64,000 bases of DNA from Lysobacterales bacterium (GTDB lineage Bacteria > Pseudomonadota > Gammaproteobacteria > Xanthomonadales > Marinicellaceae): positions 1 to 64,000 of the forward strand of contig JALSLV010000048.1 of assembly GCA_026988115.1 (NCBI GenBank), written 5' to 3'. This document shows positions 666 to 64,000 of this stretch, piece after piece. Position 1 is the first letter of the stretch. Each line of letters begins with the position of its first letter. A program made the position numbers and the translations under genes. The notes beneath the pieces were generated by a model. That model ran no database searches and had not been told where the DNA came from. It was given only the letters and a program-made list of their open reading frames with translations.

Positions 666-1448
666 ATGAATCTAATCAACAAACAGCAACAAAAACCAAT
701 ACAATTACAGGTGGCGTTAGTCCCTGTTTGTAAAATGGTCTTACGATTTGGACTGCATTTCAATGAATTTACTAGAAATATACAAAAAGCTTATATACAA
801 GCAGCTAAAGAGATCTTACTTGATACCGATATAAAACCAAATTTACAAGCGATTGCAATTAAGACAGGTATGGATCGAAGAACAATTGCAGAGCACATTA
901 ATAATAGTGATAAATCTTATTCAAACCCATTAAATAAAATGGATATGCTTATAGCTCAATTACAAAGACATTGTACTAAGACCGAAAATAATGAGTTTAC
1001 ACATAAGCAATTGAAGGGCATTATTGATTCTATTTACGGAGGTCATATTCGTTCGGGTGCAATTTCAAAAGAATTAATTTCAAATAATATAATTATCCAA
1101 CTTAAAAACAAGCTATTTAAACTTAACTTAACGGTTCAACAGCAACTTGAAGAAATTAGTCTCATGGCAAATGAAGTGGATTATACGGCAAAACGGTTAT
1201 TCCAAACTTATTATAAAAACATGTTTAAACCTTTAAATTCTCAGACAAAAAATTTATTACAGTCCAGCAGTTACTCGACAAAAATACCTCCACGAAATCA
1301 TCAAAAGGTTAATGAATTAATACAAAAAGAATTGCGTCAATCGGAGAATAATATTAACTTAATTCTAAAAAAATACGGATCAAATCTACCTGAAGGGACT
1401 TTTTCAGAAATTGGAGCCAGCCAATTTCAATTTGATTCTACTTCTTAA
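666..1448 (+). CDS. DUF6502-like protein, possible HTH regulator
   Basis: This is a 260-residue soluble protein. The first 90 residues match the pattern I associate with DUF6502 proteins: a segment of the type V-x-LVLRFGLHFNEF followed by a helical stretch and an IAIKTGMDRRTI helix that resembles a helix-turn-helix recognition helix. The remainder is Lys/Asn/Gln-rich and mostly helical. No signal peptide or membrane segment is present. It stands alone on the plus strand and has no clear Shine-Dalgarno sequence. DNA binding is inferred from the HTH-like pattern only. Family assignment is by recollection of the motif and is moderately secure. Confidence 0.6.
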   Translation: MNLINKQQQKPIQLQVALVPVCKMVLRFGLHFNEFTRNIQKAYIQAAKEILLDTDIKPNLQAIAIKTGMDRRTIAEHINNSDKSYSNPLNKMDMLIAQLQRHCTKTENNEFTHKQLKGIIDSIYGGHIRSGAISKELISNNIIIQLKNKLFKLNLTVQQQLEEISLMANEVDYTAKRLFQTYYKNMFKPLNSQTKNLLQSSSYSTKIPPRNHQKVNELIQKELRQSENNINLILKKYGSNLPEGTFSEIGASQFQFDSTS

Positions 1449-1557
1449 GTTTCACTACGTTATTGACTTGTATTCTCTTTTTTTGAGCTGCGTCATGGTT
1501 TTTAACACAACTCTACTGATACAATACGAACTTATTTACACACGATAGGGTTTAATT

Positions 1558-1848
1558 ATGTACAAGTATATTGCATTTTTTTTAATATTGACTTATCAAT
1601 TTACAGTGTCTTCACACGCGGACACTCTTTTAATAGAAGAAATTAACAAAATCAGCAGTGTTGAGAAACCAACTCGTGGTATGACGATGACTCAAGTTGT
1701 GAGCAAATTTGGTGAGCCTCAGGTTAAAAAAAAGGCTGTTGGTAAACCGCCAATTACCCAATGGGTCTACAATGATTTTATTGTCTATTTTGAAAACCGG
1801 TGGGTCATTCAAGCAGTTGTGGTAAAAAAGGATAAAGCGTTAAATTAA
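1558..1848 (+). CDS. Small secreted protein of the SmpA/OmlA-like kind
   Basis: The product has 96 residues. An N-terminal signal peptide (about residues 1-21, ending SSHA-D) precedes a compact domain with RGMTMTQVVSKFGEP, then PPITQWVY and a final strand pair FIVYFENRWVIQAVV. This is a common small periplasmic domain in Gammaproteobacteria that resembles the SmpA/OmlA (BamE-like) fold, in which a G-M-(S/T)-x-x-x-V-x-x-x-x-G motif starts the first helix. Its specific function is unknown. Its stop overlaps the end of the convergent response-regulator gene by 9 bp. Confidence 0.65.
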   Translation: MYKYIAFFLILTYQFTVSSHADTLLIEEINKISSVEKPTRGMTMTQVVSKFGEPQVKKKAVGKPPITQWVYNDFIVYFENRWVIQAVVVKKDKALN

Positions 1849-2481
1849 TCCTAATTCTAATGCTTTTAACACGGCACGAGTTCGGTCACGAACACCAATT
1901 TTTGATAAAATATTGGAAACATGGTTCTTAACAGTGCCTTCAGCAACGAAGAGTGAACTCGCGATTTCTTTATTGCTGTGACCGCCTGCCATTAACCTTA
2001 AAATTTCTGTTTCGCGTGCAGTTAATGGATCAGGCCTTTCAAAACTGATAAAGTTATTTTTTAAATCTTCTACTCCTTCAAGAATCCTTTTGGTTATTTG
2101 GGGTCTTACCAAGGTTTTGCCTGCTGCTACTTGCTTTATTCCGTCGACTAAATCCTCCAATGGCACATCTTTAAGCAGATATCCCATCGCTCCAGACTTG
2201 ACACCCGCTAAAACGAGCTCATCATCATCAAAAGTTGTCAAAATAATTGTTGGTGGCAGCTGATTTTTTTGTTTTAACTCATGCAATACATCCAACCCAG
2301 ACATTTTGGGCATTCTCATGTCTAACAACACCACATCTGGCTTCACTTCAGGAATATTTTCAACAGCCATTTTGCCCCCATCTGCTTCGCCAACGACTTC
2401 GATTCCTTCAGCAATTTCTAATAAGGCACGAACACCTTGGCGAACTAAATTTTGATCATCAACCAAATAGACTTTTATCAT
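1840..2481 (-). CDS. NarL/FixJ-family response regulator
   Basis: The protein has 213 residues. A receiver domain occupies residues 1-120, with acidic residues D8-D9, the phosphoacceptor D54 in VVLLDMRMP, a Thr in the LTTFDD segment and a Lys in LLKDVP. A LuxR-type HTH follows at about 148-205 (PLTARETEILRLMAGGHSNKEIA... EGTVKNHVSNILSKIGVRDRT). It lies 2 bp downstream of the histidine kinase and so forms its cognate partner. The target genes are not evident in the window. Confidence 0.9.
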   Translation of the reverse strand: MIKVYLVDDQNLVRQGVRALLEIAEGIEVVGEADGGKMAVENIPEVKPDVVLLDMRMPKMSGLDVLHELKQKNQLPPTIILTTFDDDELVLAGVKSGAMGYLLKDVPLEDLVDGIKQVAAGKTLVRPQITKRILEGVEDLKNNFISFERPDPLTARETEILRLMAGGHSNKEIASSLFVAEGTVKNHVSNILSKIGVRDRTRAVLKALELGLI

Positions 2482-60573: not shown

Positions 60574-62058
60574 TCAAACCCTCCCGCGTAACCATGGTGA
60601 TACACGGTATCTATCATCGCCAAACCAGTGGTGTAAATTATCCAAGGTTTCAACAACTCTTGCTATGCCTATTTTATGCGCCCATGCTATAAGCCCAATG
60701 GGATAGTTGACACCTTTTTGCATGGCTAAATCCACATCATTTTCGTTGCAGACGCCATTTTCTATGGCATCGGCGGCTTCATTGATGAGCAAACAGACGG
60801 TGCGCATGGCGATTAAGGCAGGTTTATCTTTACCAATAACAACTTGTTTGCCAAGTAATTGAAAAACACCGATCACATGATTTTGAGTGGCTTCTGGGCA
60901 GTTTTTATCAAAACTGAGGTGAATGATTGGGCAATTTTCATAATCCAACATTAGATCTATTTGTGCTAGGTGGTTTTGTTGGGTAGTTTTTAGGCGTTCT
61001 TTACAGGTTTGACCATTACTTAATTCAATAGCACAATCGTGGATTTGCATAGCTACTCCACCTTGGTGTTGGGTAACGATAATGTCATCTAGGTTTGAGA
61101 GCTGTTTTTTGAATGCGTCAAATAAAGTGCACTCACTATTAAAACTGATGGATTTAGCGGCTTGTTGTGGGCTTTGATAGTTGACTTGTGGTTTTTCTTC
61201 TCCATTGTAGCGATAAAATCCTTGCCCTGTTTTTTTACCCAGTAAATTGGCAGCAACCATTTCTTCTTGTATCAATGAGGGACGATAACGAGCATCATTG
61301 TACATACTAGCAAAAACGGTTTTACTGACCGATAAATTGATGTCGATACCGATTAAATCCATTAGAGTAAAAGGTCCCATGCGAAATCCTGCAGATGTCA
61401 TGATGGCATCCATTCCCTCTGGTTTTGCCACTTGCTCTTGCAACATTTTCATGGCTTCACCATAAAAAGGGCGTGCCACTCTGTTGACGATAAATCCTGG
61501 AGATGATTGTGCAAGTACGCCTGTTTTGTTCCAAAACACACACAATTGCAGTCCTAAATCCAAACTTTTCTTGGATGAACGCAATCCGGCAACCACTTCG
61601 ACTAATTTCATCACGGGCGCTGGATTGAAAAAATGCAGTCCTATCATATTTTCTGGTTGTTGCAAAACAGATGCTATTGATGTTATTGAAATGCTTGAGG
61701 TGTTGCTGGCAAATAATGTATTTTCGTTGCATATAAATTGCAGTTGAGTAAATAATTTTTGCTTTATTTCTAAGTTTTCAACAATTGCTTCTATAACAAG
61801 ATCTGAATCAGATAATTTTGGCAAATCAGAAATAATTTCAATATTATCTAATATTTTTTGTCGAAATTCTGCTGTAATTTTTCCACGCTGCACACGCGAT
61901 TCAAGGCGTTTTGACATGGTTTGCTTGGCTTGATTAGCAAAGGCATTGTTAAGGTCATAGACCTTGACTTGTTGATTACAACTAGCTGCTACTTCAGCAA
62001 TACCAATGCCCATAGTGCCTGCACCTATTACGGCTATATTTTGTATTTTAGTTAACAT
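60574..62058 (-). CDS. paaH: 3-hydroxyadipyl-CoA/3-hydroxyacyl-CoA dehydrogenase
   Basis: The protein has 494 residues. The NAD motif is GAGTMG (G12-G17). The conserved motif GLHFFNPAPVMKLVEVVAG and a SSPGFIVNRVARPFYGEA segment follow, then a second C-terminal 3HCDH-type domain. The length (about 480 in E. coli PaaH) and the adjacent paaG and divergent paaY support assignment to phenylacetate catabolism. It ends with a one-base overlap with paaG. Confidence 0.85.
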   Translation of the reverse strand: MLTKIQNIAVIGAGTMGIGIAEVAASCNQQVKVYDLNNAFANQAKQTMSKRLESRVQRGKITAEFRQKILDNIEIISDLPKLSDSDLVIEAIVENLEIKQKLFTQLQFICNENTLFASNTSSISITSIASVLQQPENMIGLHFFNPAPVMKLVEVVAGLRSSKKSLDLGLQLCVFWNKTGVLAQSSPGFIVNRVARPFYGEAMKMLQEQVAKPEGMDAIMTSAGFRMGPFTLMDLIGIDINLSVSKTVFASMYNDARYRPSLIQEEMVAANLLGKKTGQGFYRYNGEEKPQVNYQSPQQAAKSISFNSECTLFDAFKKQLSNLDDIIVTQHQGGVAMQIHDCAIELSNGQTCKERLKTTQQNHLAQIDLMLDYENCPIIHLSFDKNCPEATQNHVIGVFQLLGKQVVIGKDKPALIAMRTVCLLINEAADAIENGVCNENDVDLAMQKGVNYPIGLIAWAHKIGIARVVETLDNLHHWFGDDRYRVSPWLRGRV

Positions 62059-62849
62059 TACGAACCTTTAAAATTAGGCTTTCTTTTTTCAGCAAAAGCT
62101 TGCACCCCTTCTTTAAAATCATGGGTTAATCCCATCAGCCTTTGCACATCACGCTCATTGTCTAATTGTTCATCATAAGTGTTTGCATAGGATTTTTCTA
62201 ATAATTCTTTGGTATTGGCGAGAGCCAGAGTTGGACGATTTGCAATAGTTGTGACCAATTTATCTACCTCAGATTGAAAATCATCATCAGCTACACTTTT
62301 ATAAATCATGCCCCACTCTTCTGCCTTTTGTGCAGTGATAGGTTCGGCTAACATAGTCAACGCTTTAGCGCGTGCCAGTCCGACCAACTTTGGTAATATC
62401 CACGAACCATTGCAGTCAGGCACTAAACCCACTTGAGAGAAGGACTGAATAAATTTAGCTGACTCTGTAGCAATAACAATATCACAGTTTAGGGCAATAT
62501 TAGCACCCGCTCCTGCTGCCACTCCATTAACTGCACAGACTATAGGCACACGAATGGATTTTAAAATACGCAGATTAGTGTTGTAGCCTTTCTCTAGAGT
62601 CTCACCCAAATCCATTGATTTATCACCTTTACGTTCGCCTAAATCTTGCCCAGCACAAAAGCCACGCCCTGCTCCGGTAATCAAGATACATCGTAAACCA
62701 TCTTGGCGCGTTAATGATTTTAAAATTGTGTAGAATTCATCGTGCATTGTTTTAGAAAAAGCATTAAGCTTATCTGGACGATTAAGTTCGACCCGTGCGA
62801 TATTGTTTTCTATGGAAAAGTTAAAGGTCTGGTAGCTTGGATTTGTCAT
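62058..62849 (-). CDS. paaG: 1,2-epoxyphenylacetyl-CoA isomerase
   Basis: The protein has 263 residues from the ATG at 62849, which matches E. coli PaaG (262); a longer frame extends 10 codons upstream. The crotonase motif ITGAGRGFCAGQDLGER is typical of PaaG; NGVAAGAGANIALNCDIVIA forms the oxyanion hole. It isomerises the ring epoxide of phenylacetyl-CoA to oxepin-CoA. It is divergent from paaY. Confidence 0.88.
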   Translation of the reverse strand: MTNPSYQTFNFSIENNIARVELNRPDKLNAFSKTMHDEFYTILKSLTRQDGLRCILITGAGRGFCAGQDLGERKGDKSMDLGETLEKGYNTNLRILKSIRVPIVCAVNGVAAGAGANIALNCDIVIATESAKFIQSFSQVGLVPDCNGSWILPKLVGLARAKALTMLAEPITAQKAEEWGMIYKSVADDDFQSEVDKLVTTIANRPTLALANTKELLEKSYANTYDEQLDNERDVQRLMGLTHDFKEGVQAFAEKRKPNFKGS

Positions 62850-62896
62850 AAGTATTAGATTTGTTATTTTCTTGGTCAAACATTATAATACTTGTC

Positions 62897-63481
62897 ATGA
62901 AAAATATCTATGAAATTGATGGTGTCAAACCTGTCATACATCCGACAAGCTTTATTCACCCTACAGCCGTGATAATTGGTTCTGTACAAATCGGTAAAAA
63001 TTGCTACATCGGCCCCAATGCTTCTCTTCGAGGAGATTTTGGTACCATTATTTTAGAGGATGGTGTGAACTTTCAAGATATGTGTGTCGCACATGGTTTT
63101 CCTAATGGTACAACTTTGCTTAAAGAAAATGCCCATATTTCTCATGGTGCTGTTATTCATGGCTGTACAATTGGCAAAAACACTATGGTTGGAATTCAGT
63201 CAGTTATTATGGATAATGCTGTGATTGGTGATGAATGTATGATTGCGGCTTTGAGTTATATTAGACCCAATTTCGTTGCACCCAATCGTTCAATCATTGC
63301 GGGCATTCCTGCCGTAATTAAACGCGAAGTTAGCGATAAAGAAATCAACTGGAAATCAGAAGGAACCGCATTCTATCAACAATTAGCCGTTCGCAGTTTG
63401 GCAACCATGAAAACCTGTGAACCGCTTACGGATAAAAACAAGCAAAAGCCCTTAGCAAAAGGTTCTTTTCAACCGCTTTAA
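62897..63481 (+). CDS. paaY: Phenylacetate pathway hexapeptide-repeat thioesterase
   Basis: The product has 194 residues from the ATG at 62897, near the E. coli PaaY length. A left-handed beta-helix is built from hexapeptide repeats (IGSVQIGKNCYIGPNASLRGD, VVIHGCTIGKNTMVGIQSVIMDNAVIGDECMI-type), and His ligands are in AHGFPNG and ISHGAVIHG, as in the gamma-carbonic anhydrase-like fold. PaaY removes toxic dead-end CoA products. It is separated from paaG by 47 bp. Confidence 0.88.
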   Translation: MKNIYEIDGVKPVIHPTSFIHPTAVIIGSVQIGKNCYIGPNASLRGDFGTIILEDGVNFQDMCVAHGFPNGTTLLKENAHISHGAVIHGCTIGKNTMVGIQSVIMDNAVIGDECMIAALSYIRPNFVAPNRSIIAGIPAVIKREVSDKEINWKSEGTAFYQQLAVRSLATMKTCEPLTDKNKQKPLAKGSFQPL

Positions 63482-64000
63482 TCATTTTTTTGATTCGATG
63501 TATTCTGTTAAATGGCTTTTCAAATCCTTAAGTTGTCGATGAGAACAACAAAATAAACCCAAGTCTTTGGCTCGTTGTTCGGTGTAACGACTTAGCTTTT
63601 GGTAACTGACTAACATCGCTTTACCTGAATTACCACCCAATGTTTCTTTTAAGGTGTCCAGACGATAAATGGCAGCAGCACCTGGTGTATTGGCATCAGC
63701 ATGTTTAGTAAATTTTCGGGTTTTGCATTCAATTAAATGCAAGCGATTATGCGCCATGCAAATGACATCAATCTCATTTTTGACTTTACCTTGTGCGCGA
63801 ACAATTTCCATGCCTTTGGCTAAATCACTAATGGCTGGGTTTTCACTGCGCATTTCATAGAGTAGACTGAAAACATGGTTTTCCAACCACCCACCGTTAG
63901 CATAAAAGCGGCTTTCTTCGTCTTTAAAATAGATAATATTATTGTTAATATGCAAAAGCCCTACGTCTTCAAATTTGTTAAGAATTGCTTGTAAATGTGG
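63482..64000 (-). CDS. DUF1887 (Card1/Can2-type) nuclease domain, partial
   Basis: The frame is open to the window edge, so the N-terminal part is missing. The visible 172 residues match the C-terminal PD-(D/E)xK nuclease domain of DUF1887 proteins: YANGGWLENHVFSLLYEM, the catalytic Asp in NEIDVICMAHNRLHLIECK with E-C-K as the E-x-K motif, then a YRLDTLKETLGG segment. DUF1887 includes Card1/Can2, ancillary nucleases that are activated by cyclic oligoadenylate in type III CRISPR systems. The N-terminal CARF domain would lie upstream, outside the window. Orphan DUF1887 proteins also exist. It is convergent with paaY with no gap. Confidence 0.75.
   Translation of the reverse strand, partial: PHLQAILNKFEDVGLLHINNNIIYFKDEESRFYANGGWLENHVFSLLYEMRSENPAISDLAKGMEIVRAQGKVKNEIDVICMAHNRLHLIECKTRKFTKHADANTPGAAAIYRLDTLKETLGGNSGKAMLVSYQKLSRYTEQRAKDLGLFCCSHRQLKDLKSHLTEYIESKK

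What the first reader, a model, noticed from the sequence alone, without database searches (positions are those of the whole stretch)
63482..64000. Card1/Can2-like nuclease at the window edge: possible type III CRISPR locus beyond
The sequence shows a PD-(D/E)xK domain with NEID and ECK motifs in the order typical of DUF1887. Characterised DUF1887 proteins (Card1, Can2) are CARF-nuclease effectors triggered by cyclic oligoadenylate. The frame is open off the edge, and the locus is not a standard paa or hut gene.
Basis: partly seen in the sequence, partly recalled or inferred. Interest (0 to 1): 0.75.

Follow-up and report, generated by a model that had tools for sequence, protein, structure and literature searches.

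The report
Orphan CARF nuclease, no type III
The gene at the window's edge encodes a nuclease built like the CRISPR helper enzymes Card1 and Can2, but it sits in an ordinary chromosomal operon in a genome without type III CRISPR; its sensor pocket has been rewritten while its cutting site is kept, so it probably answers to something other than the usual CRISPR alarm molecule.

Summary
The frame at 63482-64000(-) is the C-terminal part of a 373-aa protein starting at contig position 64603. It is a CARF + PD-(D/E)XK protein: Card1_endonuc 94.8 bits, cut-off 26.4; the predicted model matches VC1899 at Z 42.6 and Can2 at 34.5. The type III prediction fails: the gene overlaps proC by 4 bp among housekeeping genes, the genome has no RAMP hit, its only Cas10-palm hit is a GGEEF cyclase, and its CRISPR system is type I-F. 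The protein falls in the VC1899 clade, which separates from type III-like Can2s in one step even with pocket columns removed (99/94). Its cA4-pocket signature is replaced, while catalytic E, D, E, K are invariant in 52 rows. dN/dS is 0.04-0.09, near proC, and 0.014-0.066 in related genera, so a 'degenerate' relic does not fit. It occurs in 27 of 33 family genomes, with two clean losses. Most likely: a maintained, non-essential nuclease gated by something other than cA4. Against: one clade member, in Neiella, lies beside a type III locus.

The parts
63482..64000 (-). 3' part (residues 202-373) of the CARF-nuclease gene; the gene continues outside the window to contig position 64603, where residues 1-201 (CARF domain and linker) lie
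63497..63922 (-). Card1_endonuc (PD-(D/E)XK) domain, residues 228-369
   Evidence: PF09002, 94.8 bits against 26.4; place given
63767..63778 (-). N-E-I-D motif, residues 276-279 (catalytic E277 and D279)
   Evidence: N276, E277 and D279 identical in the 52 rows; equivalent to Can2 Glu276/Asp278 named in PMC7969007 (passages)
63722..63730 (-). E-C-K motif, residues 292-294 (catalytic E292 and K294)
   Evidence: invariant in the 52 rows

Best explanation
It is a VC1899-type CARF-PD-(D/E)XK nuclease: a Can2 relative that left the type III pathway and was kept. Shown by computation: the two-domain architecture, an intact active site, a rewritten ligand pocket, purifying selection on both domains, and a chromosomal position in a genome where no type III gene was found. 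Inferred: it works as a homodimer like Can2; its CARF pocket is no longer opened by cA4; the pocket still gates the nuclease, in response to another signal (an unidentified ligand or partner); and the nuclease cuts DNA or RNA in a non-essential stress or defence role.
For: Architecture and fold. Operon with proC, no type III in the genome. Clade with one departure from type III-like Can2s, pocket columns left out of the tree. Pocket replaced at Ser, GG-T-K and Tyr positions, catalytic residues invariant. Published lack of cA4 regulation in VC1899, the nearest solved relative: PMC7969007, passages. dN/dS 0.04-0.09 in the genus (5 of 8 pairs estimable) and 0.014-0.066 in related genera (10 of 11). 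Pocket loops more conserved than the rest of the CARF domain.
Against: The Neiella member lies beside a type III locus with a GGDD Cas10, and 5 further clade genomes have RAMPs elsewhere. Residue 88, the place of the key lysine, varies freely in the window's family (R, K, N, H, Q, S), which fits poorly with any phosphate-bearing ligand. VC1899 was nearly inactive in vitro in the published assays. No candidate ligand, synthase or partner gene was found. The pocket-loop test rests on loops that I chose from the secondary structure.
Confidence: 0.5

Rival explanations
1. A constitutive or substrate-gated housekeeping nuclease (repair or RNA turnover); the CARF domain is only a dimerisation scaffold and senses nothing.
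For: Housekeeping neighbourhood and vertical upkeep; the position of the key lysine varies; no signal synthase seen.
Against: The pocket loops are more conserved than the rest of the CARF domain in the Marinicella group and in Vibrionaceae (153 and 131 of 10,000 permutations as low). The gene can be lost cleanly, which is unusual for core repair. VC1899 was nearly inactive alone (PMC7969007 passages).
Confidence: 0.27
2. A degenerate relic cast adrift from a type III system, without function (the reading offered for VC1899 in PMC7969007).
For: No type III genes; cA4 contacts lost; weak activity of VC1899 reported; lost in some genomes.
Against: dN/dS 0.04-0.09 against 0.03-0.08 for proC and 0.014-0.066 in related genera; catalytic residues invariant in 52 rows; open frame kept in 27 of 33 family genomes.
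Confidence: 0.06
3. A working cA4-gated type III effector whose type III system is elsewhere, was missed, or comes and goes on mobile elements.
For: The family as a whole tracks RAMPs (18 of 26 carriers against 26 of 344 non-carriers); Neiella has a linked type III locus; one genus relative, G021, has RAMP genes on a 3.7-kb contig.
Against: No RAMP in the own genome and in 32 of 33 family genomes; the cA4 signature is lost; VC1899 is not cA4-regulated in the published assays.
Confidence: 0.08
4. An effector that answers a CBASS-type CD-NTase or another anti-phage cyclase instead of Cas10.
For: SMODS-type CD-NTases occur in 4 of 33 family genomes.
Against: None in the own genome; one of the four (G014) lacks the nuclease; no such gene next to it in the neighbourhoods read.
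Confidence: 0.05

Closest known systems
VC1899 of Vibrio cholerae (PDB 1XMX), orphan CARF-nuclease
   Same: Closest solved structure by sequence (140 bits) and by fold (Z 42.6 over 361 residues); outside type III; Ser-to-Asp and Tyr-to-Val at the pocket; Vibrionaceae relatives fall in the same clade
   Different: About 27% identical over the structural alignment; pocket loop NASSGYR here, NASCGLR in Vibrionaceae; proC operon here, other neighbours there
Can2 of Sulfobacillus thermosulfidooxidans (7bdv) and Card1 (6xl1), type III effectors
   Same: CARF + PD-(D/E)XK architecture, catalytic residues, overall fold (Z 34.5 and 26.8)
   Different: cA4 contact residues replaced; no type III system in the genome
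Non-CRISPR CARF genes of the VC1899 family noted in PMC4012209 (for example Daci_4198; passages)
   Same: VC1899-family gene outside CRISPR loci
   Different: That one is described in a secretion/Ter gene cluster; this one follows proC
Half-way lineage in Thiotrichales and an Acidobacteria-labelled MAG (L093, L096, L098)
   Same: Sister to the clade together with gL051; Ser9 and Lys88 already changed
   Different: Keeps GGT and Tyr107 (NASGGTR ... Y)

Membership tests
Card1/Can2 (DUF1887) as a protein family | Card1-like PD-(D/E)XK endonuclease domain | tested here: met
   PF09002 94.8 bits against 26.4
Card1/Can2 (DUF1887) as a protein family | N-terminal CARF domain | tested here: met
   Fold match over the whole chain to VC1899, Can2 and Card1; full-length PADLOC CARF-PDDEXK model 7.5e-98. 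The Pfam CARF_Card1 model alone stays below its cut-off (18.3 against 24.6)
Card1/Can2 (DUF1887) as a protein family | Catalytic E, D, E, K residues | tested here: met
   E277, D279, E292, K294
Can2 as a cA4-gated type III effector | cA4 contacts Ser19, Lys99, Tyr118 (Can2 numbering) | tested here: not met
   D9, R88 (variable in the family), V107 (contacts as given in PMC7969007 passages). The fourth contact, Thr42, could not be placed securely
Can2 as a cA4-gated type III effector | Type III genes in the genome | tested here: not met
   RAMPs 0; Cas10-palm hit is a GGEEF cyclase; CRISPR system is type I-F
Can2 as a cA4-gated type III effector | Nuclease activity switched on by cA4 | not testable with these tools
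   needs purified protein
VC1899 clade | Groups with Vibrionaceae VC1899-like proteins apart from type III-like Can2s | tested here: met
   one change on the tree, support 99/94, 100% of 200 bootstrap trees, pocket columns removed. VC1899 itself was not a row
VC1899 clade | Not linked to type III | tested here: met
   own genome. In the clade: RAMPs in 6 of 36 named genomes, linked to the gene in one, Neiella
VC1899 clade | Homodimer with a shared CARF pocket | not testable with these tools
   a single chain was modelled

The most novel reading that the evidence does not exclude
The VC1899 clade is a retained signalling nuclease: its CARF pocket was refitted, once, to a signal other than cA4 (another cyclic nucleotide, or a metabolite made outside type III CRISPR), giving a CRISPR-independent, ligand-gated nuclease kept on the chromosome of Marinicella-like bacteria, Vibrionaceae and Pseudoalteromonas. 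The Neiella gene beside a type III locus with a GGDD Cas10 would be the place where the old and the new signal can be told apart.
Probability: 0.35. Interest if true: 0.75.

Novelty: new member of a known kind. Interest (0 to 1): 0.42.

Why it matters
CARF proteins tend to be read as type III sensors. Here a clade keeps the nuclease and loses the cA4 pocket, yet evolves about as slowly as its housekeeping neighbour proC. That argues against the reading of VC1899 given in PMC7969007 (a degenerate enzyme cast adrift) and turns 'what does an orphan CARF sense?' into a testable question with a defined set of residues and easy, non-pathogenic hosts.

Tried and rejected
Type III locus beyond the edge: rejected. 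PF22335 (Cas10 palm) gave hits in 32 of 33 family genomes, but it also rings in the E. coli control, and the own-genome hit is a GGEEF diguanylate cyclase; I take the rest as cross-hits too, although I read only the own-genome one. Association with CRISPR or CBASS in the family: the nuclease is absent in 3 of the 9 genomes with Cas1 and in 3 of the 24 without; SMODS in 4 of 33, one of them without the nuclease. A conserved partner gene across the clade: none in the 49 neighbourhoods compared. NCBIfam has no model for the protein. Promoter- or terminator-like sites near the gene: not above shuffles. Literature: searches. I read passages of PMC7969007, PMC4012209, PMC6981274, PMC3974666, PMC12669027 and PMC11229360; the others I saw only in listings. 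In those searches I found no functional study of VC1899 beyond PMC7969007. The 2020 CARF classification (PMC7498327) is not held, so it may already discuss this clade.

Rows dropped: searches used 75 of the 80 loci (left out: L072, L073, L075, L081, L092, partial or near-duplicate), 14 class-level loci and the window protein, 90 rows; 3 duplicates were dropped for and 29 rows in all (duplicates, close copies, long branches). One search kept the best 80 of 304 relatives, found with patterns from the window's family, so the sample leans towards it. One search used 52 chosen rows of the 90. Of the 34 rows with a GG(T/N/A)-Y107 pocket, 30 have Ser at column 9; L132 has T, L093 and L096 have Y, L098 has H. 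dN/dS pairs: 8 and 7 (3 and 1 saturated), 11 chosen pairs (1 saturated); several of the others have dS over 1, so the ratios are rough.

Full report
WHAT IS THERE. The window ends inside a gene. On the whole contig (G000:C48, 112,165 bp) the frame runs from 64603 down to 63482 and encodes 373 aa; the window holds residues 202-373. Pfam Card1_endonuc matches residues 228-369 at 94.8 bits (cut-off 26.4); Pfam CARF_Card1 matches 23-137 below its cut-off (18.3 against 24.6). A PADLOC CARF-PDDEXK model covers residues 1-370 at 7.5e-98. By sequence the best solved structures are VC1899 (140 bits), Can2 (98) and Card1 (42). A model built on 42 sequences (pLDDT 91.9, pTM 0.89) aligns to VC1899 over 361 residues at Z 42.6, rmsd 1.8; to Can2 7bdv at Z 34.5; and to Card1 6xl1 at Z 26.8.

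WHERE IT SITS. The start codon overlaps the stop of proC by four bases (ATGA). Further upstream come a SPFH protein, thrC, thrB, apaH, coq7, ppiD, HU, lon, clpX, clpP and tig; downstream, on the other strand, a PaaY-like protein (names beyond searches are my reading of the translations). No CRISPR-like repeats were found in the window or on the contig to its end. Of 11 genus genomes, 10 have the gene and all 10 have proC on that side, in L019 about 330 bp away. In Marinicella-type loci a carA-like gene lies on one side in 12 of 12, and a threonine-aldolase-like gene follows in 10 of 12 (names from translations). In Vibrionaceae and Pseudoalteromonas the neighbours differ again, and no partner is shared by the clade. 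The nearest named records are Marinicella strains and MAGs labelled Alcanivoracaceae or Lysobacterales.

NO TYPE III. The RAMP family, a standard part of type III complexes (recalled), is absent from the own genome and from 32 of 33 family genomes; the exception, G021, has it on a 3.7-kb contig. The Cas10-palm model hits only a GGEEF diguanylate cyclase in the own genome. The genome instead carries a type I-F system: cas1f, cas3f, csy1-csy4, and 38 repeat copies in the stretch read (csy1 scores 156 bits, under its cut-off of 169). The CARF-nuclease is present in 27 of 33 family genomes, in 7 of the other 217 genomes of the order sample and in 26 of 370 of the class sample. In the class sample it tracks RAMPs: 18 of 26 carriers against 26 of 344 non-carriers, p 5e-13. 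The family as a whole is type III-linked; the window's branch is an exception.

ONE DEPARTURE, ONE REWRITTEN POCKET. The Can2 paper names Ser19, Thr42, Lys99 and Tyr118 as the cA4 contacts shared with Can1, and reports that VC1899 has Asp9, Asp34, Arg96 and Val115 there, is an orphan, and shows weak RNase activity not regulated by cA4 (PMC7969007, passages). In my alignment the type III-like rows carry Ser at column 9, GG at 85-86, Lys at 88 and Tyr at 107, 19 of 19 rows counted. The 19 Marinicella-group rows carry D, H or N at 9, mostly S-G-Y at 85-87, a variable residue 88, and L, V, M or T at 107. Ten Vibrionaceae rows carry D, C-G-L-R and V. Three Pseudoalteromonas rows and Neiella carry D, C-G-D or T-G-S, R or H, and I or M. 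The column of Thr42 is not secure in my alignment. I built trees without the columns 9, 85-88 and 107. In the 87-row quick tree and the 61-row careful tree the changed pocket needs one change; in the latter the 34-row clade has support 99/94 and appears in 100% of 200 bootstrap trees. Its sister group holds a half-way pocket, NASGGTR with Tyr107 kept (L093, L096, L098), and gL051. Caveats: some long branches meet, sampling was led by the window's family, and VC1899 itself is represented by Vibrionaceae relatives.

NOT A RELIC. Within the genus, dN/dS against the window gene is 0.04-0.09 for the 5 of 8 pairs whose dS could be estimated, and 0.03-0.08 for 6 of 7 proC pairs. Both domains are constrained. 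In Photobacterium, Salinivibrio, Enterovibrio/Grimontia and Pseudoalteromonas, 10 of 11 pairs gave 0.014-0.066 and one was saturated. E277, D279, E292 and K294 never vary in the 52 rows compared. The pocket loops, chosen from the secondary structure, are more conserved than the rest of the CARF domain: 0.95 against 1.36 bits in the Marinicella group (153 of 10,000 permutations as low), 0.38 against 0.75 in Vibrionaceae (131), and 0.65 against 1.25 in type III-like rows (3). The gene can still be lost: in G019 and G031 the flanking genes stand close together and the gene is gone, and in G014 another ORF takes its place. The other three genomes without it (G001, G017, G025) were not resolved.

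RESULTS AGAINST THE READING. Among 45 named genomes searched, RAMPs occur in 6 of 6 with a type III-like protein, 1 of 3 with the half-way pocket, and 6 of 36 with a clade protein. In five of those six the RAMP contig has another length than the contig with the nuclease, so no linkage is seen. In the sixth, Neiella litorisoli, the nuclease stands a few kilobases from RAMPs and Cas6 (Pfam), and further on from a Cas10 with GGDD, an RT-Cas1-like protein, an array of some 14 repeats and other CARF-like proteins (Cas10, RT-Cas1 and CARF-like are my reading of motifs in the translations). Its pocket is D9, NASTGSH, I107. Either the neighbourhood is chance, or this protein is an effector that answers to something other than cA4. 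Residue 88 varies freely in the Marinicella group, which weakens the case for a phosphate-bearing ligand.

HOW IT MOST LIKELY WORKS. By homology to Can2 the protein should be a dimer whose two CARF domains form one pocket, with the nuclease domains closing on nucleic acid once the pocket is filled (inferred). Because the cA4 contacts are gone while pocket and active site are still under selection, I favour a gate for a different signal (0.5). A nuclease whose CARF part is only a scaffold is the main rival (0.27). A degenerate relic and a hidden type III or CBASS effector are less likely.

NOVELTY. The kind is known: VC1899 is a published orphan CARF protein, and CARF genes unlinked to CRISPR were noted in 2014 (PMC4012209, passages). 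What is added is the Marinicella-group branch, the single departure, the signature residues and the selection measurements. I did not find these in the searches, but the main 2020 CARF classification is not held.

Noticed in passing
L149 (G000:C103:1-12000), ORF 1221-2051(+): A KilA-N domain protein (PF04383, 74 bits) is inserted between cas1f and cas3f of the genome's type I-F CRISPR-Cas operon.
   Followed up: partly
L163/L105 (Neiella litorisoli, G417:C45:74280-96000): A type III locus with a GGDD Cas10, an RT-Cas1-like protein and several CARF-like proteins stands next to a VC1899-clade nuclease that lacks the cA4 signature.
   Followed up: partly
L003:14680-15084 (G000:C48:94680-95084): A 45-nt tandem repeat codes for a Q/A/K/E-rich repeat (KQEAQRLAEQKAQQA) in a 625-aa protein; the protein next to it lacks the repeat but is otherwise much alike.
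   Followed up: no
window 60574-63481: The three Paa-like genes score below their Paa equivalog cut-offs (PaaH 539 of 669, PaaG 335 of 345, PaaY 256 of 320), so they may be Paa-like rather than true Paa enzymes.
   Followed up: no
G021:C48 (L037, L038): The only RAMP genes seen in the 33 family genomes, on a 3.7-kb contig of a genome rated 5% contaminated.
   Followed up: no
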